NCBI GenBank assembly: GCA_030644725.1
Contig: CP130629.1
Span: 1,357,572 to 1,421,571 of the forward strand
Direction of reading: 5' to 3'
From: Candidatus Electrothrix communis
GTDB taxonomy: Bacteria > Desulfobacterota > Desulfobulbia > Desulfobulbales > Desulfobulbaceae
Length of the DNA: 64,000 nt
In this document: one piece after another, positions 2,191 to 27,583 of the stretch
Layout of the letters: each line of letters opens with the position of its first letter
Numbering within the stretch: position 1 is the stretch's first letter
Made by a program: the position numbers and the translations under genes
The notes under the pieces: model-generated
What the model saw: only the letters and a program-made list of their open reading frames with translations
Databases searched by the model: none
Told to the model about the DNA's origin: nothing

Positions 2191-2904
2191 TTAAATTCCA
2201 AGGTAGGCCTTCTGGATATCCTTGTCACCCAGCAGGGTTTCCGCCCGATCATGCATAATAATTTTTCCGTTTTCAAGAACATACCCCCGGTCAGCTGTTT
2301 TCAAAGCCAAATTCGCGTTCTGTTCCACAAGAAAAACGGTTGTCTTTTCTTCCTGATTGATCTTACGGATAATGCTGAAGATCTGTTTTGTCACTAACGG
2401 TGCCAGTCCCATAGAAGGTTCGTCAAGGAGCAAAAGCTGTGGCCTGGTCATCAGAGCACGGGAAAGAGCCAGCATCTGCTGTTCCCCGCCGGAGAGATTA
2501 CCTCCAGGTTGAGAACGGCGTTCCGCCAAGATGGGAAACAGGGTGTAGACATGTTCCAAATCCCGCCGGATCTGTCCGGTATCCTTACGGAGAAAGGCTC
2601 CCATATCCAAATTTTCTGCGACAGTGAGCGCTGGAAAAATATGGCGTCCTTCCGGGACTTGACTGAGCCCCAGGGCGACAATTTTCTCCGGGGGCATGCG
2701 GGCGATGGAAGTTCCCTTGAACAGAATCTCACCGCTCCGAGGTGGGACAATACCGCAGATGGACATCAGGATAGTTGATTTCCCCGCTCCGTTAGCCCCG
2801 ATCAGGGTAATAATCTCCCCCTGTTCCACATGGAGATTGATATCATGCAGGACCTGAATACCACCGTAATAGGTATTGATGTTCCGCAGTTCAAGCATGT
2901 TCAT
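2191..2904 (-). CDS. livF: Branched-chain amino acid type ABC transporter ATPase (LivF)
   Basis: The 237-residue protein is a complete ABC ATPase: Walker A GANGAGKST (about 37-45), signature LSGGEQQMLALSRAL, Walker B LLLLDEPSMGLAPL, and the H-loop region. The segment QVPEGRHIFPALTVAENL is a hallmark of LivF rather than LivG or LptB. In the Liv system LivF and LivG energise uptake of leucine, isoleucine and valine through LivH/LivM. None of livG, livH, livM or livK is visible beside it; its neighbours are a CBS gene 44 bases upstream and an oxidoreductase downstream, so it is an orphan ATPase unless its partners lie elsewhere. Confidence 0.88.
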   Translation of the reverse strand: MNMLELRNINTYYGGIQVLHDINLHVEQGEIITLIGANGAGKSTILMSICGIVPPRSGEILFKGTSIARMPPEKIVALGLSQVPEGRHIFPALTVAENLDMGAFLRKDTGQIRRDLEHVYTLFPILAERRSQPGGNLSGGEQQMLALSRALMTRPQLLLLDEPSMGLAPLVTKQIFSIIRKINQEEKTTVFLVEQNANLALKTADRGYVLENGKIIMHDRAETLLGDKDIQKAYLGI

Positions 2905-2948
2905 TCACTTGCTCCTGACCAACATAACAACAACTCGTCTGAGCAAGG

Positions 2949-3404
2949 TTATTTTCCTTCGGCAATGGTTCGGATAATATCTGACTTACCGATCACCCCA
3001 ACCAGCTCTTCCTGGTCAAGAACCGGCAGTGTATGGATGTTTTTTTCCGCCATCAAGGTGGCAAGCTCCTCCAGGGGGGTGTCTTTTTGGACAGAGATTA
3101 CCTCTGGAGCATAAATATCCCCCACGGTCACGCCAGACATCTTTTTCAGTTCCTGCTCCATTTTGTCCGGGCTTTCCAGAAAGAAAAAGGCGTCCAAAAT
3201 AGCAACAGCAGTAGGAATATGTACCTTCTTGTTCTGAAAAATAAGATCACTTTCCGTGACCACCCCGACAAGCTTGCCAGTCCCGTCAACAACCGGAACT
3301 CCGCTGATTTTGTTTTCCGTCAGAATCTTGGCAAGCTCACGGACTTCAGTCTCTTTGGTGACAGCAATGACGCTCTCCGTCATCAGGTCTTGTGCGCGCA
3401 ACAT
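2949..3404 (-). CDS. CBS-pair domain protein
   Basis: A 151-residue protein made of two CBS motifs. The first (about 8-60) contains VRELAKILTENKISGVPVVD and GVVTESDLI; the second (about 90-148) contains LEELATLMAEKNIHTLPVLD and GVIGKSDII. CBS pairs bind adenosine nucleotides and usually act as energy sensors controlling an attached or partner protein; here the pair stands alone. It sits between nnr and livF on the same strand with short gaps, so a shared transcript is likely, but no regulated partner can be named. Confidence 0.85.
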   Translation of the reverse strand: MLRAQDLMTESVIAVTKETEVRELAKILTENKISGVPVVDGTGKLVGVVTESDLIFQNKKVHIPTAVAILDAFFFLESPDKMEQELKKMSGVTVGDIYAPEVISVQKDTPLEELATLMAEKNIHTLPVLDQEELVGVIGKSDIIRTIAEGK

Positions 3405-3465
3405 TATATTTCCTTATTTTTCTCTATCTGTATCGTTTTCTGAGTTGTTCAATCCGCACGGAACG

Positions 3466-5058
3466 TTAATCCGCTTCTTTGATCCGCATAAATGCCCTTG
3501 GTAGAGCAGCCGCAACCTCAGAGGCTGTAAAGCCGTGGCTCCGGTCTTGAGCCAGGATATCAGCGGCCAGACCATGCTGATACACTCCGATTGCAGCGGC
3601 ATCCCAAGGTGTATATCCTTGGACAAGCAGCCCGCCGATCAGACCGGCCAACACATCTCCCATGCCACCGGTTGCCATCCCGTGATTACCGCTCTTATTG
3701 ATGGCCCACTCCCCTTTGCTGGAGCTGAGAACTGTTCCGGCTCCCTTAAGTATCACAATAATTTCATGCTCATCATGCACCAAATCCTTTGCCAGCTGGC
3801 TGGCAGCACCCAAACGATCTCTCTGGACGGCGGCGACCGTCTTTCCGGTCAGGCGGGACATCTCGCCGGGGTGAGGCGTGAGAATGCGAACCCCGCCGCT
3901 CTTTTCCAAGACTTCCGGTTTTGCGGCCAGCAGGTTGAGAGCGTCCGCATCAATAATCATGGGCAGCTTCAGCTCTCTGTACAGACGGCGGACCAGTAAT
4001 CCGGTCTCAGGATCCGTCCCCATACCCGGCCCGATAACCAAGGCGCCCCGGTCGGCAAGAAGCTCGCAGATCAGATCATAATCCGCTGCACAAAAAGTCC
4101 TGCTCGAATGAGGCAGCGGAACCGTCATGGCTTCGGGCAGGCTTGTCTCGAAAATCGGATTCAGCTCCGCCGGAACCGCCAGAGTCACCAAGCCGCAGCC
4201 GCTGTGCAAAGCTCCCTTGCCCGCAAGAATGGCGGCACCGGTCTTCCCTTCAGAGCCAGCCAGTATAAGCAGATGCCCATAGGTCCCTTTATGCGCTGCT
4301 GTTCGGCGTTCCTGAACAAGAGGGGCTATCTCGCAACGATCAAAGACTCGACCGTGCAGGTCAGCCTGCGTCACCACCAGGTCGGGGATGGAGATATCAA
4401 GCACTGTCAGCTTGCCGACCATCGGACCTCCATGATGGAAATGCCCCGGCTTGGCAAGTCCGTAGGTCACCGTAAGATCGGCCCGGACAGCATTTCCGAG
4501 AGGGGTGCCGGTGTCGGCACAAAGGCCGGAGGGAATATCCGCCGCCACCACAGGCCATTGCCGGTCGCCAGCCATGATTTTGATAAACTCTATGATTTCG
4601 GAAAAATATCCTTCAATCTTCCTGGACAGGCCTGTTCCGAACAGGGCATCAACCAGGCTGTGAACAGGATGACTGAAATGAAGCTGGCGGATCAGTTCCT
4701 TCAGCTGTCGGGCCTCACCCTCATGGTGGACGATATAATGGATAAATCCGAGTTTGTTGCAAATTCTCGCATTCGTTTCAGCATCGCCGGAGAATTTTTC
4801 AGGCGGAATCAGATAAACGAGAAAAGGATGCCCTCCCCGCTGGGCAACATGGCGGGCAATAACTAAGCCGTCACCTCCGTTATTTCCCGGTCCGATAAAA
4901 ATACAAACGGTTTTCCCCTGAACAGTGCCGTACTCCTGTTCCATGGCATCCACGGTCCCTCTGCCAGCATTTTCCATGAGGACAATACCGGGGATACCAA
5001 TCTCTTCAATGGAGGTTCTGTCCAGGGCCTGCATCTGGCCCGAGGTTGCTATTCTCAT
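3466..5058 (-). CDS. nnr: Bifunctional NAD(P)H-hydrate repair enzyme Nnr
   Basis: At 530 residues this matches the usual fused Nnr. The N-terminal YjeF_N epimerase domain (about 1-215) starts with SGQMQALDRTSIEEIGIPG and carries FIGPGNNGGDGLVIAR. The C-terminal ADP-dependent dehydratase (about 235-525) shows IGPGMGTDP, DADALNLLA, ILTPHPGEMSRL and the ribokinase-like nucleotide motif NHGMATGGMGDVLAGLIGGL. Together the two activities epimerise and dehydrate damaged R/S-NAD(P)HX back to NAD(P)H. The CBS gene follows 61 bases downstream, suggesting an operon. The start is an ATG with a plain N-terminus and no signal peptide, as expected for a cytosolic enzyme. Confidence 0.95.
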   Translation of the reverse strand: MRIATSGQMQALDRTSIEEIGIPGIVLMENAGRGTVDAMEQEYGTVQGKTVCIFIGPGNNGGDGLVIARHVAQRGGHPFLVYLIPPEKFSGDAETNARICNKLGFIHYIVHHEGEARQLKELIRQLHFSHPVHSLVDALFGTGLSRKIEGYFSEIIEFIKIMAGDRQWPVVAADIPSGLCADTGTPLGNAVRADLTVTYGLAKPGHFHHGGPMVGKLTVLDISIPDLVVTQADLHGRVFDRCEIAPLVQERRTAAHKGTYGHLLILAGSEGKTGAAILAGKGALHSGCGLVTLAVPAELNPIFETSLPEAMTVPLPHSSRTFCAADYDLICELLADRGALVIGPGMGTDPETGLLVRRLYRELKLPMIIDADALNLLAAKPEVLEKSGGVRILTPHPGEMSRLTGKTVAAVQRDRLGAASQLAKDLVHDEHEIIVILKGAGTVLSSSKGEWAINKSGNHGMATGGMGDVLAGLIGGLLVQGYTPWDAAAIGVYQHGLAADILAQDRSHGFTASEVAAALPRAFMRIKEAD

Positions 5059-7341: not shown

Positions 7342-7800
7342 TTATGCTGCTTCTTCAGCGTGCAGAGGGCGGACCTGAACAATGAGATTTTTTCTTTCGA
7401 GGATCTGAACCACCGTATCTACAGGTATCGGTTCATTAGCAATCGCCTGCCAAAAAGAGCCGCCGTATTGAACCCGCCCATGACCTGGGGGCATAATAGC
7501 CTCGGTCACAATACCGGTAGACGGAGTAGAGTCCACATTAACTGAATCATCTTCTTTACTGGAATCACCGATAAAAACAGAGCGAAGCCATGATCGAAGC
7601 GAGATAAGGGTGACAAGAGAGCTGATCAGGAAAATGACCATCTGAACAGTTAACGACACATCGGTCAAGGCCAGCACCGAAGCTGTACACCAAGCCCCGA
7701 TACCGAGAAAGAAGAGGATAAAGCTCGGAAGAACAAGCTCCGTAACAAAAAAAAACACTCCCAGAAGAAACCAGATAAGAATAGGAGAAACAGATTCCAT
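7342..7800 (-). CDS. NfeD family membrane protein
   Basis: The ATG at 7800 is preferred over one 18 bases earlier because GGGAGAG precedes it at the right distance; the protein then has 152 residues. Three to four hydrophobic helices occupy residues 5-75, and a C-terminal OB-fold like segment (about 90-150) contains GIVTEAIMPPGHGRVQYGGS and VQILERKNLIVQV. This is the short NfeD form without the protease domain. It is transcribed toward the SPFH gene 122 bases away, and the two products are expected to act together in the membrane. Confidence 0.88.
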   Translation of the reverse strand: MESVSPILIWFLLGVFFFVTELVLPSFILFFLGIGAWCTASVLALTDVSLTVQMVIFLISSLVTLISLRSWLRSVFIGDSSKEDDSVNVDSTPSTGIVTEAIMPPGHGRVQYGGSFWQAIANEPIPVDTVVQILERKNLIVQVRPLHAEEAA

Positions 7801-7928
7801 ATATACTCTCCCGAACAAGGGTTGATTTTTATCGGTATTTCAAAACAAAGTATAATATTTTACCAAGAAAAGCAAACGAAGAAATAAGGCGATATAAGAA
7901 AAGAGCAAGACATGATGACAAGCAGGCC

Positions 7929-8005
7929 CGCAATACCTCTTTCTAAAAAGTATTGCGCGATGATCTGCCCTTGATTATACCGGGAATACCGTATCAGGGC
8001 AGGTG
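7929..8005 (+). promoter_or_regulatory. Structured leader upstream of the nucleoside transporter gene
   Basis: Two hairpins precede the transporter gene. CGCAATAC (7929-7936) pairs with GTATTGCG (7950-7957), and CTGCCCTTGAT pairs with ATCAGGGCAG over about 7966-8002, with a second partly paired element inside. No known riboswitch consensus was recognised. It could be a leader regulating the transporter or the end of another transcript. Confidence 0.35.
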
Positions 8006-8041
8006 GTGTCTGGCAACAGAAATAAGATGTGAGGTTTTTTG

Positions 8042-9301
8042 ATGAATATTAACTATGTAACGCGCGGACTCTTAGGAATGACCGTTCTTTGCCTGCTGGC
8101 ATGGTTGCTCAGCGAGAACAAGAAACAAGTACGCGTCAAACAGGCCTGCCTCGGTTTATTGATCCAGCTTGCCCTTGCTACTCTTTTGCTCAAAATTCCT
8201 TTTAGCAAGAATCTCTTCTTGGTTCTGAATAAAGGCGTACTTCTTTTGCAGGAGGCCACAGAAGCTGGGACATCCTTTGCCTTCGGGTACATCGGCGGTG
8301 GTGATCTGCCTTTTACAGAATCTTTTCCCGGCGCAGGCTTTATTCTCGCCTTTCAGGCCCTGCCTATCATCCTGGTGATGAGTGCCTTATCTGCCTTGCT
8401 GACCTACTGGCGAATCCTCCCTGCCCTTGTCCGCCTTTTTTCGAGGCTTTTTCAAAAAACAATGGGCATTGGCGGAGCCCTTGCTGTGGGGACTGCCGCC
8501 AATATCTTTCTCGGGATGGTTGAATCGCCCCTCCTGATCAGGCCTTACCTTTCCCGAATGACCAGGAGCGAACTCTTTGCCACCATGACCTGCGGCATGG
8601 CCACCATTGCAGGCACGGTGCTGATTCTCTATGTCACAATACTGGACAAACTTCTCCCGGATGCAGCCGGTCATATCCTGGCTGCCTCCATCATCAGCGT
8701 ACCAGCAGCCATTACTGTGGCCCGCATTATGATCCCGGAGACCGAGAACCCCACCGAAGGCGGCATGGTACCCGACCAAGAGGTAAGCAGCAGCATGGAT
8801 GCGATCACTAAGGGAACCGCTGACGGCGTCGGACTTTTTCTTAATATAACAGCCATGCTGGTCGTGCTGGTCTCGCTCATCCATCTTGTTAATCTGCTCC
8901 TGGGCCTCTTCCCTGATTTTCACGGCACACCCGTGACCATGCAGCGATGCTTGGGATATGTTATGGCCCCTGTGGCTTGGCTCATGGGGATTCCCTGGCA
9001 AGAAGCTGTACCGGCTGGCTCCTTGCTCGGAATAAAGACCGTTCTGAATGAGTTCCTCGCCTATATGGAACTGGCCAAGCTCCCGGAACAGACCTTATCC
9101 CCCCGCAGTACTGTGATCATGACCTATGCCCTGTGCGGATTTGCCAACTTCGGCAGTCTCGGCATCATGATCGGGGGCATGGGCACAATGGCTCCAGAGC
9201 GCAAAAATGAAATTATTGCGCTGGGTATCCGCTCCATCATTGCCGGCACCCTGGCTACCTGTTTGACCGGTGCAACAGTAGGAATCTTGCTCGGAGAGTG
9301 A
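8042..9301 (+). CDS. Concentrative nucleoside transporter (CNT/NupC family)
   Basis: A 419-residue polytopic protein read from the ATG at 8042; a TTG three bases earlier is in frame, but the GTGAGG site fits the ATG better. It has the CNT layout: three N-terminal helices, a gate domain (AFQALPIILVMSALSALLTY, about 104-123), the conserved GTAANIFLGMVESPLLIRPY segment and the C-terminal transport core (YALCGFANFGSLGIMIGG). CNT proteins import nucleosides with Na+ or H+. The gene is single, with structured DNA upstream and no obvious purine or pyrimidine gene alongside. Confidence 0.9.
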   Translation: MNINYVTRGLLGMTVLCLLAWLLSENKKQVRVKQACLGLLIQLALATLLLKIPFSKNLFLVLNKGVLLLQEATEAGTSFAFGYIGGGDLPFTESFPGAGFILAFQALPIILVMSALSALLTYWRILPALVRLFSRLFQKTMGIGGALAVGTAANIFLGMVESPLLIRPYLSRMTRSELFATMTCGMATIAGTVLILYVTILDKLLPDAAGHILAASIISVPAAITVARIMIPETENPTEGGMVPDQEVSSSMDAITKGTADGVGLFLNITAMLVVLVSLIHLVNLLLGLFPDFHGTPVTMQRCLGYVMAPVAWLMGIPWQEAVPAGSLLGIKTVLNEFLAYMELAKLPEQTLSPRSTVIMTYALCGFANFGSLGIMIGGMGTMAPERKNEIIALGIRSIIAGTLATCLTGATVGILLGE

Positions 9302-19649: not shown

Positions 19650-21266
19650 TCAGCATCCCCATATTTCAATCCGGCGACTGCCGCATCTCTCGCTTCGATG
19701 CCAGATTTTCGTCTCCCATGCCGTCTTCGGGTCCCGGTCAAACAGCACAAGATGCACCTCGTCGGCAGCAAAGGCATCTGCGTACTCAACAGCCTGTTGC
19801 CCGCCCTGTTCAACAAGCCTATCCAGACTGCCCCGCAGGATCTTTAGTTCAATAACAATCCGTTGCACCTCCCCGTAATATCCCTGTTCCCTATCCAGCG
19901 GCCATTCAATGGCCAGATCGGTGCGTTTACGCCCCAGCCCGTATTCCCGGTTGATCCTGCCGCCGCTGTTGATGATCCGCTGGAGAAAGGCCTGCATCAA
20001 GAGCTGCGGCCCGGCCTCCTTATAGTCGAAGCGTTCGATCCAGGATGCTGAATGCTCCCGGAAGAACTGCTGAAAAGCGGCCATCAGCTTGTTCATGTTC
20101 AGCCGGTGATCTGGATCAACATACCATTCCTGCTGCTCGACAATGGTGTCCTGGGTCGAAGCGGTCAGTTCCCTGGGGATGATCTCTTGGTAGATGCGAT
20201 TGGCAATCCGCACCTGCGGCTTTCGCTGAATCAGGCCGAGATCCTCCAGATACTGAAGATCATCTGTCGGCACCTGAAACCCGGTCTCCTCACCGGAAAG
20301 GAGCAGAGAGATCGTTCGCCGCACCCGTGCTTCCTGCAACTTGTCAGCCAGCTGATCAAGATGGGTTGCGCGGGATTGGATCAGGCGTTCCCGCGCAGCC
20401 TGATACTGCTGCAAGGTGATATCCGCAGTACGATCACGGGCGGTTTTGTCCTTCCAGGCCATCTCGTAGGCCAAGGCATTGACCAGCCAGGGCTGCCCTT
20501 GGGTGTCCTGCCAGACTTCGGCAAAGATCTCCGGGGCGAACCCCTGACCGGTTTCCTGGCTATGCTGTTGATAGAGCAGGGTGATTTCTTCCTGACTAAA
20601 GTTACCCATGCGCAGGGATTCCGCTTTGATGTTAAAGGCGGACCCGCCAGTGATCACCTCTCCATCCGCCTGTTGGATACGGTAATCTTTGACATCCCGC
20701 ACACCGCAGAGGACCACCGTCTGGGGAAAGGTTGCCGGTCGCTGATTATAGCCTTTGCGGAGCTGGCGGAGCAGGGAGATCAGGGTATCACCGACCAGGG
20801 CGTCCACCTCATCCAGAAGCAGGACAACAGGCTTTGCACTTTCTCTGGACCAACGGGCCAGAAGAGCTTCCAGAATACCGTGGCCCCCACGTTGTTCCTT
20901 TTCTTCTCTGATCCATTGATGTAGGCGTTTATCCTTCAGGTATACAGAGGCGGATGCGGCAATGGCACCGGCTACCTCAAAGAGGCCCTGGTCAACATTA
21001 TTCCGCGCAGTCTGGGCTGTTTCAATATTGGCATACAGGCAGATATACTCGTCTCTGCTGTTCAGGTGCTCCATCAGGGTCAGCAGGAGGGAGGTCTTGC
21101 CGGTCTGGCGGGGGGCGTGGAGGACAAAGTATTTCTTCTGTTGGATCAGGAGGAGGAGTTCATCCGCATCCAGCCGGGAGAGCGGCGGCAAGGCGTAATG
21201 ATCCTCCAGGTTGACCGGGCCTGCGGTGTTGAAGAATTTTATAGGGGCTGTGGTTCTTTTTTGCAA
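19650..21266 (-). CDS. AAA/STAND-like ATPase with C-terminal PD-(D/E)XK nuclease-like domain
   Basis: 538 residues. Walker A is VLHAPRQTGKTSLL (about 48-61), Walker B VVLLLDEVDAL (about 146-156), and a sensor-like segment VVLCGVRDVKDYR follows; a winged-helix-like region with QVPTDDLQYLEDLGLI comes next. The last 120 residues show GLGRKRTDLAIEW followed by IVIELKILRG and QAVEYADAF, the D...ExK and Gln pattern of PD-(D/E)XK nucleases. Proteins of this make-up are frequent accessory genes in filamentous and multicellular bacteria and of uncertain role. The start is a TTG inside a duplicated segment, so the true start could differ. It follows the Rpn gene by six bases. Confidence 0.8.
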   Translation of the reverse strand: MQKRTTAPIKFFNTAGPVNLEDHYALPPLSRLDADELLLLIQQKKYFVLHAPRQTGKTSLLLTLMEHLNSRDEYICLYANIETAQTARNNVDQGLFEVAGAIAASASVYLKDKRLHQWIREEKEQRGGHGILEALLARWSRESAKPVVLLLDEVDALVGDTLISLLRQLRKGYNQRPATFPQTVVLCGVRDVKDYRIQQADGEVITGGSAFNIKAESLRMGNFSQEEITLLYQQHSQETGQGFAPEIFAEVWQDTQGQPWLVNALAYEMAWKDKTARDRTADITLQQYQAARERLIQSRATHLDQLADKLQEARVRRTISLLLSGEETGFQVPTDDLQYLEDLGLIQRKPQVRIANRIYQEIIPRELTASTQDTIVEQQEWYVDPDHRLNMNKLMAAFQQFFREHSASWIERFDYKEAGPQLLMQAFLQRIINSGGRINREYGLGRKRTDLAIEWPLDREQGYYGEVQRIVIELKILRGSLDRLVEQGGQQAVEYADAFAADEVHLVLFDRDPKTAWETKIWHRSERCGSRRIEIWGC

Positions 21267-21298
21267 AGCTGTTCAGTTGTTTTTGTTTTTTTGCTTTG
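21256..21298. repeat. Direct repeat, copy 1 (downstream flank of the Rpn gene)
   Basis: The 43 bases starting CTTTTTTGCAAAGCTGTTCA recur at 22244-22287 with two or three differences. Copy 1 covers the last codons of the Rpn gene and the TTG start of the ATPase-nuclease gene. Confidence 0.8.
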
Positions 21299-22112
21299 AG
21301 CCCTGCAACTGCTCGACCTCATATACAGAAAGCCCGGTAATTGCAGCAACAACCTGCACCTCCAATCCTTGTTCCAAGGATCGCCTGGCAATCATCATTT
21401 TTTCATCTTTTCTGCCTTTTTCAACCGCACCTTTTTGGAAATAAATAAAATCCCGCCTTTTGCTCTGCAACTCCAGTTCTTCCTCCGGCAGGCCGGCTGT
21501 ATTCGCCATGTTGAATGCTTCCTGCAACAAAGGTTCTGTAAAGGTTACCGGGATGAAATCAAGTTCTCCGGCATGTTTGATAAAATAGAGCCATTTTTCG
21601 GTGATGGTTGTCAATTCATCTTCACGCTTTGTAAACTTGGGCAGCTCGACAAAAATTAATTCAATATCATCACTATATTTCAACAAGGTATCTTTTTCCC
21701 GAACATTCCAGTAAGAAATCACCTTGTCGAACTCCTCGAACATCGGAAAATCAGTGATAGTCAGGGCTATAATCGGTTCTAATCCCGTGTATTGCTGCGC
21801 CCGTTTTAGCTGATTGGAGTACAGCTTTGCAGCATTGTACAATACCCGCTTTTCAAAGCCCTCCACATTGAGAACCTGCATCTCTATGATCACTTTTGTC
21901 TGATTCGACAGGACAGCCTTGACATCCACGTAACTGTCCTTCATACCTTTGAGCAAAGGAATCTGGTAGGGATCAACGATGGTAAGGTCTGTTACTTTGG
22001 CGTTTTCAAAATCAATAATGGCGTTAAGGAAATTAATCAGGATATTTTTGGAATGCTCACTGCCGAAGACTTTTTTAAACGCGAAGTCGGTTTTGACGTC
22101 TAAGAATTGCAT
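21273..22112 (-). CDS. Rpn/PD-(D/E)XK family putative transposase nuclease
   Basis: 279 residues. The N-terminus DVKTDFAFKKVFGSEHSKN and the core YVDVKAVLSNQTKVIIEMQV (about 62-81) are diagnostic of the PDDEXK_2/Rpn family; the catalytic D and ExQ residues are visible there. Rpn proteins are Ca-stimulated DNA endonucleases that promote recombination and are over-represented in bacteria with many accessory genes. The C-terminus (QGSKQKNKNN) is low-complexity and encoded by a repeat. Flanking direct repeats at 21256 and 22244 suggest the gene arrived as a cassette between the TPR and ATPase genes. Confidence 0.88.
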   Translation of the reverse strand: MQFLDVKTDFAFKKVFGSEHSKNILINFLNAIIDFENAKVTDLTIVDPYQIPLLKGMKDSYVDVKAVLSNQTKVIIEMQVLNVEGFEKRVLYNAAKLYSNQLKRAQQYTGLEPIIALTITDFPMFEEFDKVISYWNVREKDTLLKYSDDIELIFVELPKFTKREDELTTITEKWLYFIKHAGELDFIPVTFTEPLLQEAFNMANTAGLPEEELELQSKRRDFIYFQKGAVEKGRKDEKMMIARRSLEQGLEVQVVAAITGLSVYEVEQLQGSKQKNKNN

Positions 22113-22189
22113 GAGGGCATCCTCTCTGAGTTTTTTGTAGTCGGATAGGTCCGCTTGAATAAAACGAAAGAAGACTGTCTATTTCTCTA

Positions 22190-22213
22190 ATTATCTGATT
22201 ATCTGATTATCTG
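22190..22213. repeat. Three tandem 8-bp units
   Basis: ATTATCTG is repeated three times head to tail in the gap between the TPR gene and the Rpn gene. It is a short satellite that could vary in copy number. Confidence 0.85.
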
Positions 22214-22243
22214 ATTTCGTTGCACTCAATCAAATCTACGCAA

Positions 22244-22287
22244 CTTTTTTGCAAAGCTGTTTAGTTGTTTGTGTTTTTTTTGCTTTG
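22244..22287. repeat. Direct repeat, copy 2 (upstream flank of the Rpn gene)
   Basis: Matches 21256-21298 apart from two or three positions and T-run length. It lies eight bases past the stop codon of the TPR gene. Together the copies bracket about 0.95 kb containing the whole Rpn gene. Confidence 0.8.
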
Positions 22288-22294
22288 TTCTCTC

Positions 22295-24235
22295 TTAGCC
22301 CTGCTCCTTCAGCTGGCGTAACTGTTCCAGGCATTTTTCCGCCCGTAGGGGCATGGTGAATTCATGGTACTTATCTGCGGCCTTTTGCCAATACTCTGCC
22401 GCCTGTTGTGGTTTCCCTTGAGCCTGATAAAGTTCGGCAAAGCCTTCCAGGCATTCGGCCACACCTTCCCAGCCTTGAATACGTTCAAATAGGGCTGATG
22501 ATTGCTCAAGATATTGTTGAGCGGAAGCAAAATCCTTGGTCTGCACGGCTAACCTGCCAAACATCCTCAAGCTGTCTGCTTCGCCCACAGGGTCAGCGAT
22601 ATTTTCATAAGATTGCTGGGCACCTGCAAAACATTTCTCGGCCTCCAAAAACTTAGGCAGCCGGAGATACACCTCACCAAGGGCTTGAAGGCAGTTGGCC
22701 TGACCGAGCCGAGCACCAATTTCACCGTAGAGCGGCATCGCCTCCTCATACCGCTTGCGGGCATCTCCAAGTTCTGACAGACGAAGATGCACGTCGCCAA
22801 GGGCTTTCAGGCAGTTGGCCTGACCGAGCCGAGCACCAATTTCACCGTAGAGCGGCATCGCCTCCTCATACCGCTTGCGGGCATCTCCAAGTTCTGACAG
22901 ACGAAGATGCACGTCGCCAAGGGCTTTCAGGCAGTTGGCCTGACCGAGCCGAGCACCAATTTCACCGTAGAGCGGCATCGCCTCCTCATACCGCTTGCGG
23001 GCATCTCCAAGTTCTGACAGACGAAGATGCACGTCGCCAAGGGCTTGAAGGCAGTTGGCCTGACCGAGCCGAGCACCAATTTCACCGTAGAGCGGCATCG
23101 CCTCCTCATACCGCTTGCGGGCATCTCCAAGTTCTGACAGACTCAGATGCACGTCGCCAAGGGCTTTCAGGCAGTTGGCCTGACCGAGCCGATCACCAAT
23201 TTCACCGTAGAGCGGCATCGCCTCCTCATACCGCTTGCGGGCATCTCCAAGTTCTGACAGACGAAGATGCACGTCGCCAAGGGCTTGAAGGCAGTTGGCC
23301 TGACCGAGCCGATCACCAATTTCACCGTAGAGCGGCATCGCCTCCTCATACCGCTTGCGGGCATCTCCAAGTTCTGACAGACGAAGATGCACGTCGCCAA
23401 GGGCTTGAAGGCAGTTGGCCTGACCGAGCCGATCACCAATTTCACCGTAGAGCGGCATCGCCTCCTCATACCGCTTGCGGGCATCTCCAAGTTCTGACAG
23501 ACGAAGATGCACGTCGCCAAGGGCTTTCAGGCAGTTGGCTGCTAGATACTGATCATCCTCCTTAACCTTCACCTTCGTCAAGGGAATCAGCTCCAAGGCA
23601 TCCTTGGCCTGTTGATTGCGGGAATAGCGCATATCCACCTTTGCCTGCCGGAACAGAAAATACAGCACTGCCTTATCCGGCAGCCGCTTCATTTCCCGGT
23701 GTTCCTGTACTGCCTGGAGCAGGCTTTCTGCCCTGTCATAGGCGAAATAGGGCGAGTTTGTCCAATGAACACAGGTGTTGTTGAGGGCATCAGCCCCCTC
23801 TTCAGGCTTGGCAATTATCTGATGATAGATGGTTTCAATCTGCCAGGTAATATCCTCCTGATCTTGGGCTTTACAATACGCAAAGGCACGACTGGAAATC
23901 TCCCGATACCATTCTTCATCTTCCTTACAAAGCCGCTCCTGCAACAGCTTACGGCTACGCTCATGGACGTTGTACCGTCCCTCACCGGGATAGGGTTCGA
24001 TATAGGGCTGCTCAAGCAGTTCGGCAAACTGCCCCTCATCCAAAGGCTGATCCAGCAGGGCATTAAGGAAGGCTCGATCAAAGAAACGCGGTACCGCAGC
24101 AGCCCGGACAGCGGCTTGCAGTTCTTTCGGCAGCTGGGCAATACTGAAGCGCAGGGACAGCCAGTCACGTTCCTCCTGACTCTCACAGGCTTGGAGCTGC
24201 TCCAGTAATTCCTGATAGGGATTGGTTTCTGACAT
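22295..24235 (-). CDS. Winged-helix/TPR protein, C-terminal half of a split STAND-like NTPase
   Basis: 646 residues. Residues 1-115 (LSLRFSIAQLPKELQAAVRA, then FAELLEQPYIEPYPGEGRYN and VHERSRKLLQERL) look like the helical/winged-helix part that follows the NTPase in STAND proteins. Then come TPR-type helices, seven near-identical 40-residue units (ALGDVHLRLSELGDARKRYE and EAMPLYGEIGARLGQANCL, about 237-516) and three diverged units to the end. TPR arrays of STAND proteins sense ligands or partners and gate oligomerisation. The ATG lies six bases after the stop of the P-loop NTPase gene, so the pair is one translational unit. In most relatives I would expect a single fused protein. No catalytic residues are present here. 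Confidence 0.8.
   Translation of the reverse strand: MSETNPYQELLEQLQACESQEERDWLSLRFSIAQLPKELQAAVRAAAVPRFFDRAFLNALLDQPLDEGQFAELLEQPYIEPYPGEGRYNVHERSRKLLQERLCKEDEEWYREISSRAFAYCKAQDQEDITWQIETIYHQIIAKPEEGADALNNTCVHWTNSPYFAYDRAESLLQAVQEHREMKRLPDKAVLYFLFRQAKVDMRYSRNQQAKDALELIPLTKVKVKEDDQYLAANCLKALGDVHLRLSELGDARKRYEEAMPLYGEIGDRLGQANCLQALGDVHLRLSELGDARKRYEEAMPLYGEIGDRLGQANCLQALGDVHLRLSELGDARKRYEEAMPLYGEIGDRLGQANCLKALGDVHLSLSELGDARKRYEEAMPLYGEIGARLGQANCLQALGDVHLRLSELGDARKRYEEAMPLYGEIGARLGQANCLKALGDVHLRLSELGDARKRYEEAMPLYGEIGARLGQANCLKALGDVHLRLSELGDARKRYEEAMPLYGEIGARLGQANCLQALGEVYLRLPKFLEAEKCFAGAQQSYENIADPVGEADSLRMFGRLAVQTKDFASAQQYLEQSSALFERIQGWEGVAECLEGFAELYQAQGKPQQAAEYWQKAADKYHEFTMPLRAEKCLEQLRQLKEQG
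22681..23540. repeat. Seven tandem 120-bp repeats inside the TPR gene
   Basis: Units start at 22681, 22801, 22921, 23041, 23161, 23281 and 23401, each exactly 120 bases, followed by a partial unit to about 23540. They are almost identical in DNA. Differences are confined to CTTTCAG/CTTGAAG (Lys/Gln), GAG/GAT (Ala/Asp) and one CGAAG/CTCAG (Arg/Ser). The first three Asp-type units are contiguous, showing recent unit duplication. Confidence 0.97.
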
Positions 24236-25527: not shown

Positions 25528-25640
25528 ACTTCTTCTTTTTCTTCCTCTTCGGCTCAGCAACAACCCCAGCCTTCAGCTGCGGAAAGAGAATCACGTCCCG
25601 GATGGACGGCGAATCGGTGAACCAGCCGGTCAATCCCGAT
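25528..25640 (-). pseudogene. Decayed duplicate of the lysS 3' end
   Basis: The reverse strand reads TDSPSIRDVILFPQLKAGVV then AEPKRKKKKK and a stop, almost the exact C-terminus of the intact LysS encoded at 26075-26180. Identity continues upstream through a GIDRL-like segment that is out of frame because of an approximately 10-base deletion. The intact and decayed copies bracket the hicB-like gene. Confidence 0.9.
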
Positions 25641-25658: not shown

Positions 25659-26078
25659 TCACTCAAAGCTCAACACAAGCCTCTTGCCGAGAGCAGCCGC
25701 AGCCTTGTCGATCATTTTCAGCGTCGGAGAATTATGCGGATTTTCGAGCCGTTTGACCGACGGCCAGGAAGTCTCAAGTATTCTTGCAAGATCTGCAAGC
25801 GACTTGCCTTCCCGCGATTTACGGATCAACAAAGCGGCCTGCACTTTGACGTCAGGCGGAATCAAATAAATATTATTACCCGTTACTGAAGAAGGTTCGG
25901 GGAGATCCAATCCTTCGTCAAGACGGTACTCCAAGGTCAGCCTAAGCACCTCAGAAGCATTAAACAGAGCCTCCGCCAAGGTTTCTCCTTGAGTCACAGC
26001 CTCTTCAATGTCGGGAAAAGAGACAAAGAAAAGGCCGTCCTCTTCAAGGATTATCTGTGCGGGGTATTGACTGTTCAC
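25659..26078 (-). CDS. HicB-like antitoxin with C-terminal helix-turn-helix, no HicA visible
   Basis: 139 residues from a GTG that overlaps the lysS stop codon (GTGA). Residues 5-55 are the HicB fold (AQIILEEDGLFFVSFPDIEE followed by ALFNASEVLRLTL). The C-terminal 65 residues form an XRE-like DNA-binding domain (KSLADLARILETSWPSVKRLE). HicB normally neutralises the HicA mRNA interferase and represses its own operon. No HicA-like frame exists on either side: upstream is lysS, downstream a lysS remnant. It is therefore an orphan, perhaps a solitary regulator or a leftover of a toxin-antitoxin cassette. Confidence 0.8.
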   Translation of the reverse strand: MNSQYPAQIILEEDGLFFVSFPDIEEAVTQGETLAEALFNASEVLRLTLEYRLDEGLDLPEPSSVTGNNIYLIPPDVKVQAALLIRKSREGKSLADLARILETSWPSVKRLENPHNSPTLKMIDKAAAALGKRLVLSFE

Positions 26079-27583
26079 TTCTTCTTTTTCTTCTTCTTCG
26101 GCTCAGCAACCACCTCAGCCTTCAGCTGCGGAAAGAGAATCACGTCGCGGATGGACGGTGAATCCGTAAGCAGCATCACCAGCCGATCAATACCAATCCC
26201 CTCCCCTGCTGCCGCAGGCATCCCGTATTCCAAGGCCCGGACATAATCCGCATCCAGCTCAGGATGAATCTCGTCATCGTCGCCGCGCTCGTCAATCTGC
26301 TTGGCAAAGCGCTCATGCTGATCAACCGGATCATTCAACTCGGAAAAGGCATTTGCCAACTCCCGCCCGGTGATAAAGAGCTCAAAGCGGTCAGTCACGC
26401 TGGGGTCTTCCTCATTGCGCCGGGCCAGCGGGGAAACCTCAGCTGGATAAGCGGTGATAAAGGTAGGATCAATCAGCTTTTCTTCCACCAGCAACTCGAA
26501 CAACTCGGTTTTGGCCTTGCCCGGACCAGCATCAGGCTGAAGCTTGATGCCCTTTTTCTTGGCCAGACCAATGACGGTGTCATCCTTGAGCAGCTCCGCA
26601 TCAAGACCGCCCACTTCAATCAGGGCCTCGTCCATTGTGTAGCGACGCCAGGGCGGAGCCAGATTCACCGGAATACCCTGGTAGACAATCTCCGCAGAAC
26701 CGCAGACCTGCGTCGCAATGAAGGAAACCATCTCCTCGGTCAAATCCATCAGATCTTCATAAGTGGCATAGGCCTGATAAAACTCCAGCATAGTGAATTC
26801 CGGATTATGGCGGGTGGAGAGCCCCTCGTTGCGGAAATTCCGGTTGATCTCGAATACCCGCTCAAAACCGCCCACCAGCAAACGCTTGAGATAGAGTTCC
26901 GGAGCAATGCGCAGGAAGAGATCCATATCCAATGCATTATGATGGGTCTTAAAGGGCTTGGCTGTGGCCCCGCCCGGCACCGGCTGCATCATCGGGGTTT
27001 CCACCTCCATAAAGCCGCGCTCGGTGAGGAAATCTCGAATCAGACGGATAATCTCCCCCCGCTTACGGAAGGTGTCCCGGACCTCTGGATTAACGATCAG
27101 ATCCACATAACGCTGGCGATAGCGGGTCTCCACGTCCGTCAGCCCGTGAAATTTCTCCGGCAGAGGGCGCAGGGACTTGGTGATCATGTACAAGCGGGAT
27201 GCATCCAGAGAGGGCTCACCGGTCTTGGTTTTGAACAGCTTGCCTTCCACCCCGACGATATCACCCACATCCCATTTCTTAAAGAACTGAAAATCCTCGC
27301 CCAGCTCATCCCGGCGAGCGTAGACCTGCATCCGGCCGGTCTCGTCCTGGACATGAAAAAAGGCGGCCTTGCCGAATTTGCGCAGAGACATGACGCGACC
27401 TGCAATCCGGTACACTGCATCATCCGGGGCATGGGTCTCCGGCTCCAGGCTATCTGCTAACGGCAGGATTTCTTTGACCGGCTGGGGATTCTGAAAGTCA
27501 TTACTGAACAGATTAACCCCGGCGTCGGCCAGGGTTTGCGCTTTTTCACGTCGCTGCTTGAGGAGCTGATTCTGATTATCCAT
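26075..27583 (-). CDS. lysS: Lysyl-tRNA synthetase, class II
   Basis: Read from the ATG at 27583 the enzyme has 502 residues, the normal bacterial LysS length. It has the N-terminal OB anticodon-binding domain (AGRVMSLRKFGKAAFFHVQD, about 50-70), class II motif 1 (FMEVETPMMQPVPGG), motif 2 (FRNEGLSTRHNPEFTMLEFY) and motif 3 (GIGIDRLVMLL). The extreme C-terminus is a run of seven lysines. ablB overlaps its start by eight bases, so LysS is co-translated with beta-lysine biosynthesis genes. It charges tRNA-Lys in the cytoplasm; the context links lysine use for protein and for osmolyte. Confidence 0.97.
   Translation of the reverse strand: MDNQNQLLKQRREKAQTLADAGVNLFSNDFQNPQPVKEILPLADSLEPETHAPDDAVYRIAGRVMSLRKFGKAAFFHVQDETGRMQVYARRDELGEDFQFFKKWDVGDIVGVEGKLFKTKTGEPSLDASRLYMITKSLRPLPEKFHGLTDVETRYRQRYVDLIVNPEVRDTFRKRGEIIRLIRDFLTERGFMEVETPMMQPVPGGATAKPFKTHHNALDMDLFLRIAPELYLKRLLVGGFERVFEINRNFRNEGLSTRHNPEFTMLEFYQAYATYEDLMDLTEEMVSFIATQVCGSAEIVYQGIPVNLAPPWRRYTMDEALIEVGGLDAELLKDDTVIGLAKKKGIKLQPDAGPGKAKTELFELLVEEKLIDPTFITAYPAEVSPLARRNEEDPSVTDRFELFITGRELANAFSELNDPVDQHERFAKQIDERGDDDEIHPELDADYVRALEYGMPAAAGEGIGIDRLVMLLTDSPSIRDVILFPQLKAEVVAEPKKKKKKK

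What the first reader, a model, noticed from the sequence alone, without database searches (positions are those of the whole stretch)
21256..22287. Rpn nuclease gene bracketed by about 43-bp direct repeats
The two repeats match apart from two or three positions and enclose about 0.95 kb holding only the Rpn gene. Rpn proteins promote recombination. The same bracket pattern is seen around hicB a few kilobases away, suggesting one mechanism of gene insertion with duplication of the flank.
Basis: partly seen in the sequence, partly recalled or inferred. Interest (0 to 1): 0.6.

Follow-up and report, generated by a model that had tools for sequence, protein, structure and literature searches.

The report
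Rpn gene between duplicated gene ends
The two repeats around this Rpn nuclease gene are real, but one of them is the gene's own tail and its join to the next gene, so they are more likely a leftover of local duplication than the scar of Rpn inserting itself, although small toxin-antitoxin gene pairs in close relatives do appear to carry insertion scars of this shape.

Summary
Window 21256-21298 and 22244-22287 match over 44 columns (two substitutions, one gap), bracket Rpn (21273-22112, -) and were found nowhere else in the genome. But copy 1 is not neutral flank: it is Rpn's last codons, its stop and the junction to the downstream ATPase ORF. The same junction occurs in relative G003 and, decayed, in G005 downstream of lysS, so Rpn already adjoined the ATPase there. 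Copy 2 lies behind the TPR gene, next to a degenerate palindromic MITE-like element; it looks like a later second copy of the Rpn 3' end, perhaps the remnant of an upstream tandem Rpn. No clean empty site was found. Insertion with a 44-nt target duplication stays a live rival. That resembles the known 'insertion with long target duplication' of restriction-modification genes. At one site the mismatches fit one homologous crossover, with one discordant position; a second site showed no such pattern. Nothing implicates Rpn as the cause.

The parts
21256..21298 (-). Repeat copy 1: last codons and stop of Rpn, short junction, and the first codons of the ATPase ORF as listed
   Evidence: same junction in G003 (L058) and decayed in G005 (L174)
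22244..22287 (-). Repeat copy 2: second copy of the Rpn 3' end and junction, a few nt behind the TPR stop codon, next to the MITE-like element
21273..22112 (-). Rpn family gene, 279 aa (PF12784 1e-50; TIGR01784 4.2e-48)
22139..22240 (-). Degenerate palindromic MITE-like element between copy 2 and Rpn; related copies at other loci of the genus
   Evidence: matches at 22139-22200 and 22210-22239 to a copy in L217; 22117-22246 folds at -27.4 kcal/mol as RNA, no shuffle control; one search found no inverted pair here at its settings
19650..21266 (-). AAA ATPase (AAA_35/AAA_22), downstream partner of Rpn
22295..24235 (-). TPR protein with near-identical 120-bp internal repeats, upstream neighbour
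25659..26078 (-). HicB-like antitoxin gene (PF15919) between two copies of the lysS 3' end
26077..26197 (-). lysS 3' end, original copy
25528..25640 (-). lysS 3' end, second copy beyond hicB (121 columns, 85%)

Best explanation
The bracket is not an insertion scar made by Rpn. Copy 1 is the inherited join between Rpn and the ATPase gene (Rpn tail, stop codon, short spacer, ATPase start). Copy 2 is a later second copy of that same gene end. Most likely the Rpn unit was duplicated in tandem and the upstream copy was then deleted except for its 3' end, which now lies between the TPR gene and a MITE-like element in front of the surviving Rpn. Shown: identity of copy 1 as gene end plus junction; its presence in G003 and, decayed, in G005; the MITE-like element beside copy 2; no other copy found in the genome. 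Inferred: the tandem duplication and the deletion, and their order.
For: Copy 1 codes for the Rpn C-terminus and overlaps the listed ATPase ORF. G003 has Rpn (95% identical protein) with the same tail and junction. G005 keeps a decayed Rpn tail joined to a decayed ATPase start downstream of lysS. Copy 1 and copy 2 differ by 2 substitutions in 43, copy 1 and the G005 junction by 8 in 43, copy 2 and G005 by 10 in 43, so the duplication looks younger than the Rpn-ATPase junction (P of 2 or fewer at rate 8/43 is 0.008). Adjacent Rpn genes occur at 4 places among the 23 matches (one with a below-cut-off partner; not all are alike enough to be recent duplicates), and at one of them (L015) the neighbour's 3' end shows up in front of the next Rpn as a 57-nt repeat. 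One paper says rpn arrays arise by tandem duplication and rpn genes lack target-site duplications (PMC10327210, section 4 read). The ATPase homologue of G001 C190 (81%), which has no Rpn beside it, has no such repeat in front of it.
Against: No remnant of a first Rpn beyond the 44 nt is visible in front of copy 2. The dating rests on 43 nt, and the G005 junction lies in decaying DNA that may have changed faster, so an old duplication is not excluded. Rpn's tail beyond 'EQLQ' is longer than in most close paralogues printed (L071 is an exception), as it would be if the last codons came from a target. In G001 a TPR remnant lies before an ATPase fragment with no Rpn between, which could be a decayed empty site. 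Toxin-antitoxin modules in this genus do insert with target duplications, which raises the prior for that reading. Rpn loci of other genera (79 loci) were not examined for brackets.
Confidence: 0.5

Rival explanations
1. Insertion with target duplication: a unit of MITE-like element plus Rpn entered between TPR and ATPase and duplicated a 44-nt target; the last Rpn codons come from the target. This would be one more case of what toxin-antitoxin modules do in this genus.
For: Form of the bracket; a hicB bracket about 3.2 kb away; HEPN/MNT modules of relatives between target duplications of 32 and 204 nt with an empty site in another genome; Rpn tail longer than in most close paralogues; TPR remnant before an ATPase fragment without Rpn in G001.
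Against: The Rpn-tail/ATPase junction is already in G003 and G005 while copy 1 and copy 2 are closer to each other than either is to G005; the right edge would lie inside the Rpn coding sequence; no repeat in front of the ATPase of G001 C190; no clean empty site found.
Confidence: 0.32
2. Rearrangement through the MITE-like element: recombination between copies of it joined a TPR segment ending in an old Rpn 3' end to the element-Rpn-ATPase segment; neither tandem duplication nor insertion of Rpn took place here.
For: Copy 2 ends next to the element; the element occurs at 9 separate places by my count of the second listing; the TPR remnant of G001 lies just behind a truncated copy of it.
Against: The donor of TPR plus Rpn tail is not seen; apart from the decayed copy in G001 the TPR tail has only weak matches (26-32% for the best ones outside the window's own gene) in the genus.
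Confidence: 0.13
3. Chance similarity of A-rich ends of two genes.
For: The stretch is A-rich.
Against: 63.5 bits against a maximum of 51.8 in 210 pairings; the less A-rich part CAACT(G/A)AACAGCTTTGC is shared too.
Confidence: 0.02

Closest known systems
rpn gene arrays and remnants (PMC10327210; section 4 and passages seen)
   Same: Rpn family gene with other Rpn genes in the same genome, variable C-terminus, presence varying between close relatives.
   Different: The paper reports no target-site duplications at rpn genes; here a 44-nt bracket exists, made of the gene's own end. The paper speaks of COG5464; this protein's Pfam hit is PF12784, a term not found in its main text.
Insertion with long target duplication (Nobusato et al. 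2000, Gene 259:99; not read, seen as a reference in PMC3031569, PMC3874152 and PMC2654758, and described in passages of the first two)
   Same: A gene or module between two direct copies of a stretch that is single in an empty site, duplication of the order of 100 bp and variable, no transposase seen in the module.
   Different: Described there for restriction-modification genes; here for HEPN/MNT and perhaps HigBA and HicB modules. The Rpn bracket itself does not pass, because its repeat belongs to the Rpn gene in the relatives too.
MITEs (short palindromic dispersed elements; recalled)
   Same: Short, palindromic in its better copies (L217), non-coding, dispersed in the genus.
   Different: No family was assigned and no parent transposase was sought; the window's copy is degenerate.

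Membership tests
Rpn family (PF12784 / TIGR01784) | Match over the curated cut-off | tested here: met
   PF12784 173 bits against cut-off 27.4; TIGR01784 164.5 against 52.1
Rpn family (PF12784 / TIGR01784) | Nuclease activity; separately made short C-terminal protein | not testable with these tools
   Needs expression and assays
Insertion with long target duplication, for the Rpn bracket | Empty site with one copy of the repeat in a colinear relative | tested here: not met
   None found in the loci fetched; nearest is a decayed TPR/ATPase neighbourhood in G001 without the repeat. The repeat was not searched through the relatives' whole genomes
Insertion with long target duplication, for the Rpn bracket | Repeat is target sequence, foreign to the inserted gene | tested here: inconclusive
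   It is Rpn tail plus junction in G000, G003 and G005, which speaks against, but the tail could have come from the target
Insertion with long target duplication, for HEPN/MNT in G005 (L244) | Empty site with one copy | tested here: met
   G005 L244 1-831 and 1859-3150 match G007 L262 874-1704 and 1501-2792; the 204-nt overlap is single in G007 and double in G005
Insertion with long target duplication, for HEPN/MNT at lysS in G003 | Empty site with one copy | tested here: met
   G003 3001-3298 and 4035-4836 match G005 2507-2804 and 2773-3577; 32 nt of overlap
Insertion with long target duplication, for HigBA at the Rpn/ATPase junction in G003 | Two simple copies of one target that is single elsewhere | tested here: inconclusive
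   Junction (23 nt) and ATPase 5' part (100 nt) are on both sides and single in G000, but the first copy is broken by about 380 nt with 21-bp repeats, and G001 C129 has that element with an ATPase fragment and no HigBA seen in the stretch read, so the fragment may be older than HigBA
Insertion with long target duplication, for hicB in the window | Empty site with one copy and the same downstream DNA | tested here: inconclusive
   lysS 3' end is duplicated, but the DNA beyond the second copy had no match in the G003 and G005 stretches compared
Insertion sequence or transposon | Conventional transposase with terminal inverted repeats and a short fixed target duplication | tested here: not met
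   The only gene between the copies is Rpn, whose family labels contain the word transposase but which PMC10327210 holds not to be one; the MITE-like element lies on one side of Rpn only

The most novel reading that the evidence does not exclude
In these bacteria small toxin-antitoxin modules, and perhaps Rpn with its MITE-like neighbour, move without a transposase as circles that carry one copy of their last target and enter a new genome by one homologous crossover in that stretch. This would turn 'insertion with long target duplication' from a description into a mechanism.
Probability: 0.2. Interest if true: 0.65.

Novelty: new member of a known kind. Interest (0 to 1): 0.4.

Why it matters
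It separates two things that look alike in one genome: a gene flanked by a copy of its own end (local duplication) and a module flanked by copies of its target (insertion). The G005/G007 pair is a sharp occupied/empty pair for a HEPN/MNT module with a 204-nt target duplication and a mismatch pattern that hints at where a crossover may have taken place, so the open question how gene modules without a transposase insert with long duplications can be tested on it.

Tried and rejected
Chance: rejected by score. Dispersed repeat: rejected for the own genome, two hits. Rpn as a transposase acting through these repeats: no support; 1 of 21 Rpn loci tested has a tight bracket that I do not put down to something else. 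Two of the 23 matches were left out of that test (L024, L025, both below the Pfam cut-off).

First reading of G001 C129 as 'Rpn 5' flank without Rpn' was withdrawn: the shared stretch is the MITE-like element. My working label 'TFB-like' for the 212-aa gene beside lysS (note) was wrong as far as Pfam goes; it matches DUF6398. The palindrome of the window's element is degenerate: one search found no inverted pair in 22100-22300.

The count of brackets by gene class (loci tested, with a bracket called unique, with dispersed ones only: HigB 18, 9, 2; MNT 16, 3, 2; Rpn 39, 5, 3; ATPase 14, 0, 1; lysS-like 11, 0, 0; TPR 8, 1, 0; HicB 1, 0, 1) is not used as evidence: 7 of the 9 HigB cases look like GC-rich hairpin repeats (L217, L218, L222, L223, L224, L229, L230), two MNT cases likewise (L240, L242), and orthologous loci made this Rpn, the G003 HigBA, the lysS HEPN/MNT and hicB count as 'dispersed'. 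The table was typed from search outputs and left out loci of distant genera and others.

Crossover signature: seen at one site (G005 HEPN/MNT), with position 199 against a single switch and with uneven background (34 differences in the 627 nt upstream, 10 in the 1088 nt downstream). States in three distant relatives did not settle it: by my count the right-copy state occurs in at least one of them at 4 of the 9 positions. At the G003 HigBA site against G000 the pattern is mixed, no single switch. The second lysS 3' copy beyond hicB is closer to the own lysS (10 of 113) than to lysS of four other genomes (16-22 of 112), which says nothing about a crossover.

In G005 and G007 the 103-nt lysS 3' copy lies behind the DUF6398 gene, which also follows the second lysS copy in G003; so there the copy is not a bracket round an inserted gene. 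The extra 33-nt hits fall in lysine-rich coding sequence and were dropped.

A tRNA was looked for at L022 and none was found. PADLOC gave no match for Rpn or HicB and only weak ones for the TPR and AAA proteins.

Full report
What is there. The window is a stretch of a single-contig genome of 4.85 Mb. The best Rpn relatives in named genomes are a Desulfobulbaceae MAG (69%) and Candidatus Electrothrix marina (67%) (which may leave out the own and very near genomes); on this ground, and from recall that Electrothrix are cable bacteria, I take the genus to be near them. On the minus strand the genes run lysS, hicB, a small ORF, an AAA protein, a TPR protein, Rpn, an AAA ATPase and an MFS protein (lysS and MFS named by me from their sequence). 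The repeat pair 21256-21298 / 22244-22287 is real, 44 columns, 93%, above all flank pairings of different Rpn loci, and was found nowhere else in the own genome.

What copy 1 is. Copy 1 is not outside Rpn. It holds the last codons of Rpn, the stop and the start of the ATPase ORF as listed. In G003 the orthologous Rpn (95%) ends with the same junction, with a 9-nt deletion. In G005, on the stretch that follows lysS, a decayed Rpn C-terminus is joined to a decayed ATPase N-terminus by a recognisable junction. So the Rpn-ATPase pair, with copy 1 in it, is probably older than the split of these three. Copy 2 differs from copy 1 at 2 of 43 positions, copy 1 from G005 at 8 of 43, copy 2 from G005 at 10 of 43. 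This favours a duplication younger than the pair, but it rests on few positions and G005 may have changed faster.

What lies between. The stretch between copy 2 and the Rpn start is a MITE-like element of about 100 nt. One copy of the family, in L217, is a clear palindrome of 93 nt; a search with it gave 44 hits in 22 of 181 sequences, overlapping loci included, and the window's own element found 9 separate places by my count, three of them (window, G003 Rpn, G001 C129) in the neighbourhoods discussed here. The window's copy is degenerate (one search found no inverted pair there). Copy 2 abuts it on one side and the TPR end on the other. In G003 and in G001 C129 only the right half of the element is found.

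Empty site. No site with TPR - one repeat - ATPase was found; I fetched 30 of the 48 ATPase places listed and scanned those loci for the repeat, and did not search the repeat through the relatives' whole genomes. The AAA protein next to TPR is found in G000 only, 1 of 8 genomes of the genus. The TPR tail has weak matches in all 8 genomes, as TPR proteins do, but a close one only in G001 C129, decayed (61%, with stops); there it lies before a 21-bp-repeat element and an ATPase fragment, without Rpn and without the repeat. That may be a decayed empty site or a deletion. G004 has lysS followed by a peptidase-like gene (my label) and MFS, with no Rpn, ATPase or TPR in the stretch. In G003 lysS and Rpn-ATPase lie at different places, each beside a copy of the same 539-aa gene, a transposase by my recognition.

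The hicB bracket and the lysS site. The second bracket of the finding is a duplicated lysS 3' end. lysS was found in 7 of 8 genomes; a partial copy of its 3' end lies downstream in 5 of 7: G000, G001, G003, G005, G007, not in G002 and G004 (22 nt only in G001). In G003 a HEPN/MNT pair lies between the copies, and the second copy, not the first, continues into the DNA that follows lysS in G005: an insertion with 32 nt of duplicated target. G001 has the same insertion with the HEPN gene cut. In G005 and G007 the copy lies behind the DUF6398 gene, so this is another short duplication and not an inserted gene.

Other modules. A HEPN/MNT pair in G005 lies between two copies of a 204-nt stretch that G007 has once: this is the clearest occupied/empty pair. 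Related modules elsewhere: G003 C2 with a different 157-nt bracket, and two places in G006 where no such bracket was seen in the loci held (L263 none; L269 a 38-nt pair). A HigB-like pair in G003 has a 120-nt bracket; no empty site was sought for it. In G003 a HigBA pair lies between Rpn and ATPase with junction (23 nt) and ATPase 5' part (100 nt) on both sides, while G000 has Rpn and ATPase directly joined; but the first copy is broken by a 21-bp-repeat element that G001 C129 also has beside an ATPase fragment, so this case is not simple. The same HigBA core (695 nt, 85%) lies near lysS in G001. Domain names are from Pfam.

How it may work. At the 204-nt target the left copy of G005 agrees with G007 at the nine informative positions from 4 to 78 and the right copy at 102, 146 and 156; position 199 goes with the left copy, against a single switch. 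Six of the nine changes in the right copy are silent in the gene frame by my reading. This fits one homologous crossover between the chromosome and a circle that carried the module and a target copy from another strain. It is one site; the background between G005 and G007 is uneven, distant relatives did not settle it, and at the G003 HigBA site the pattern is mixed.

Comparison with print. Papers in the held library say that restriction-modification genes can insert with long and variable target duplications, of the order of 100 bp (PMC3874152 and PMC3031569, passages; the original paper of 2000 was not read). Three searches that joined toxin-antitoxin with target duplication or flanking repeats (15 of 27 papers listed, 5 of 5, 10 of 20) showed, by titles and openings of abstracts, no paper that reports it for toxin-antitoxin modules; passages of PMC2654758 did not either. 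One search for cable bacteria with toxin-antitoxin listed 2 papers, neither on this by title. [quoted passage not shown]

Verdict. The bracket is real. It is more likely a leftover of duplication of the Rpn gene end than a scar of Rpn insertion, but the second reading is not excluded.

Noticed in passing
window 22658-23539: The TPR gene holds tandem 120-bp units, overlapping stretches of which are 93-97% alike, a sign of recent expansion or homogenisation.
   Followed up: no
L244 (G005 C1, 3000466 region) against L262 (G007): HEPN/MNT module with a 204-nt target duplication and an exact empty site in G007; mismatch pattern fits one crossover except at one position.
   Followed up: partly
L261 (G003 C2, about 938 kb), positions 592-748 and 2358-2514: A related HEPN/MNT module (91%) at another site with a different 157-nt bracket, 91.7%.
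   Followed up: partly
L233 positions 1327-1446 and 2087-2205 (G003 C1, 1744796 region): HigB/HTH pair between two copies of an ORF 3' end with a terminator-like hairpin, 120 nt, 90%.
   Followed up: no
L022 (G000 C1, 1900887 region): Another Rpn gene lies between 134-nt direct repeats, 84%, about 2.8 kb apart; no tRNA found there.
   Followed up: partly
L174 5269-5523 (G005): The decayed Rpn of G005 keeps an open frame of 84 aa that covers the C-terminal part only, the part described for other Rpn proteins as a separately made antitoxin (PMC10327210 abstract); no Pfam match.
   Followed up: no
L058 about 7768-8136 (G003) and L214 about 4537-4945 (G001): An element of 21-bp repeats coding for a DVQNEIL-like repeat lies in front of a fragment of the ATPase gene in both genomes.
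   Followed up: no
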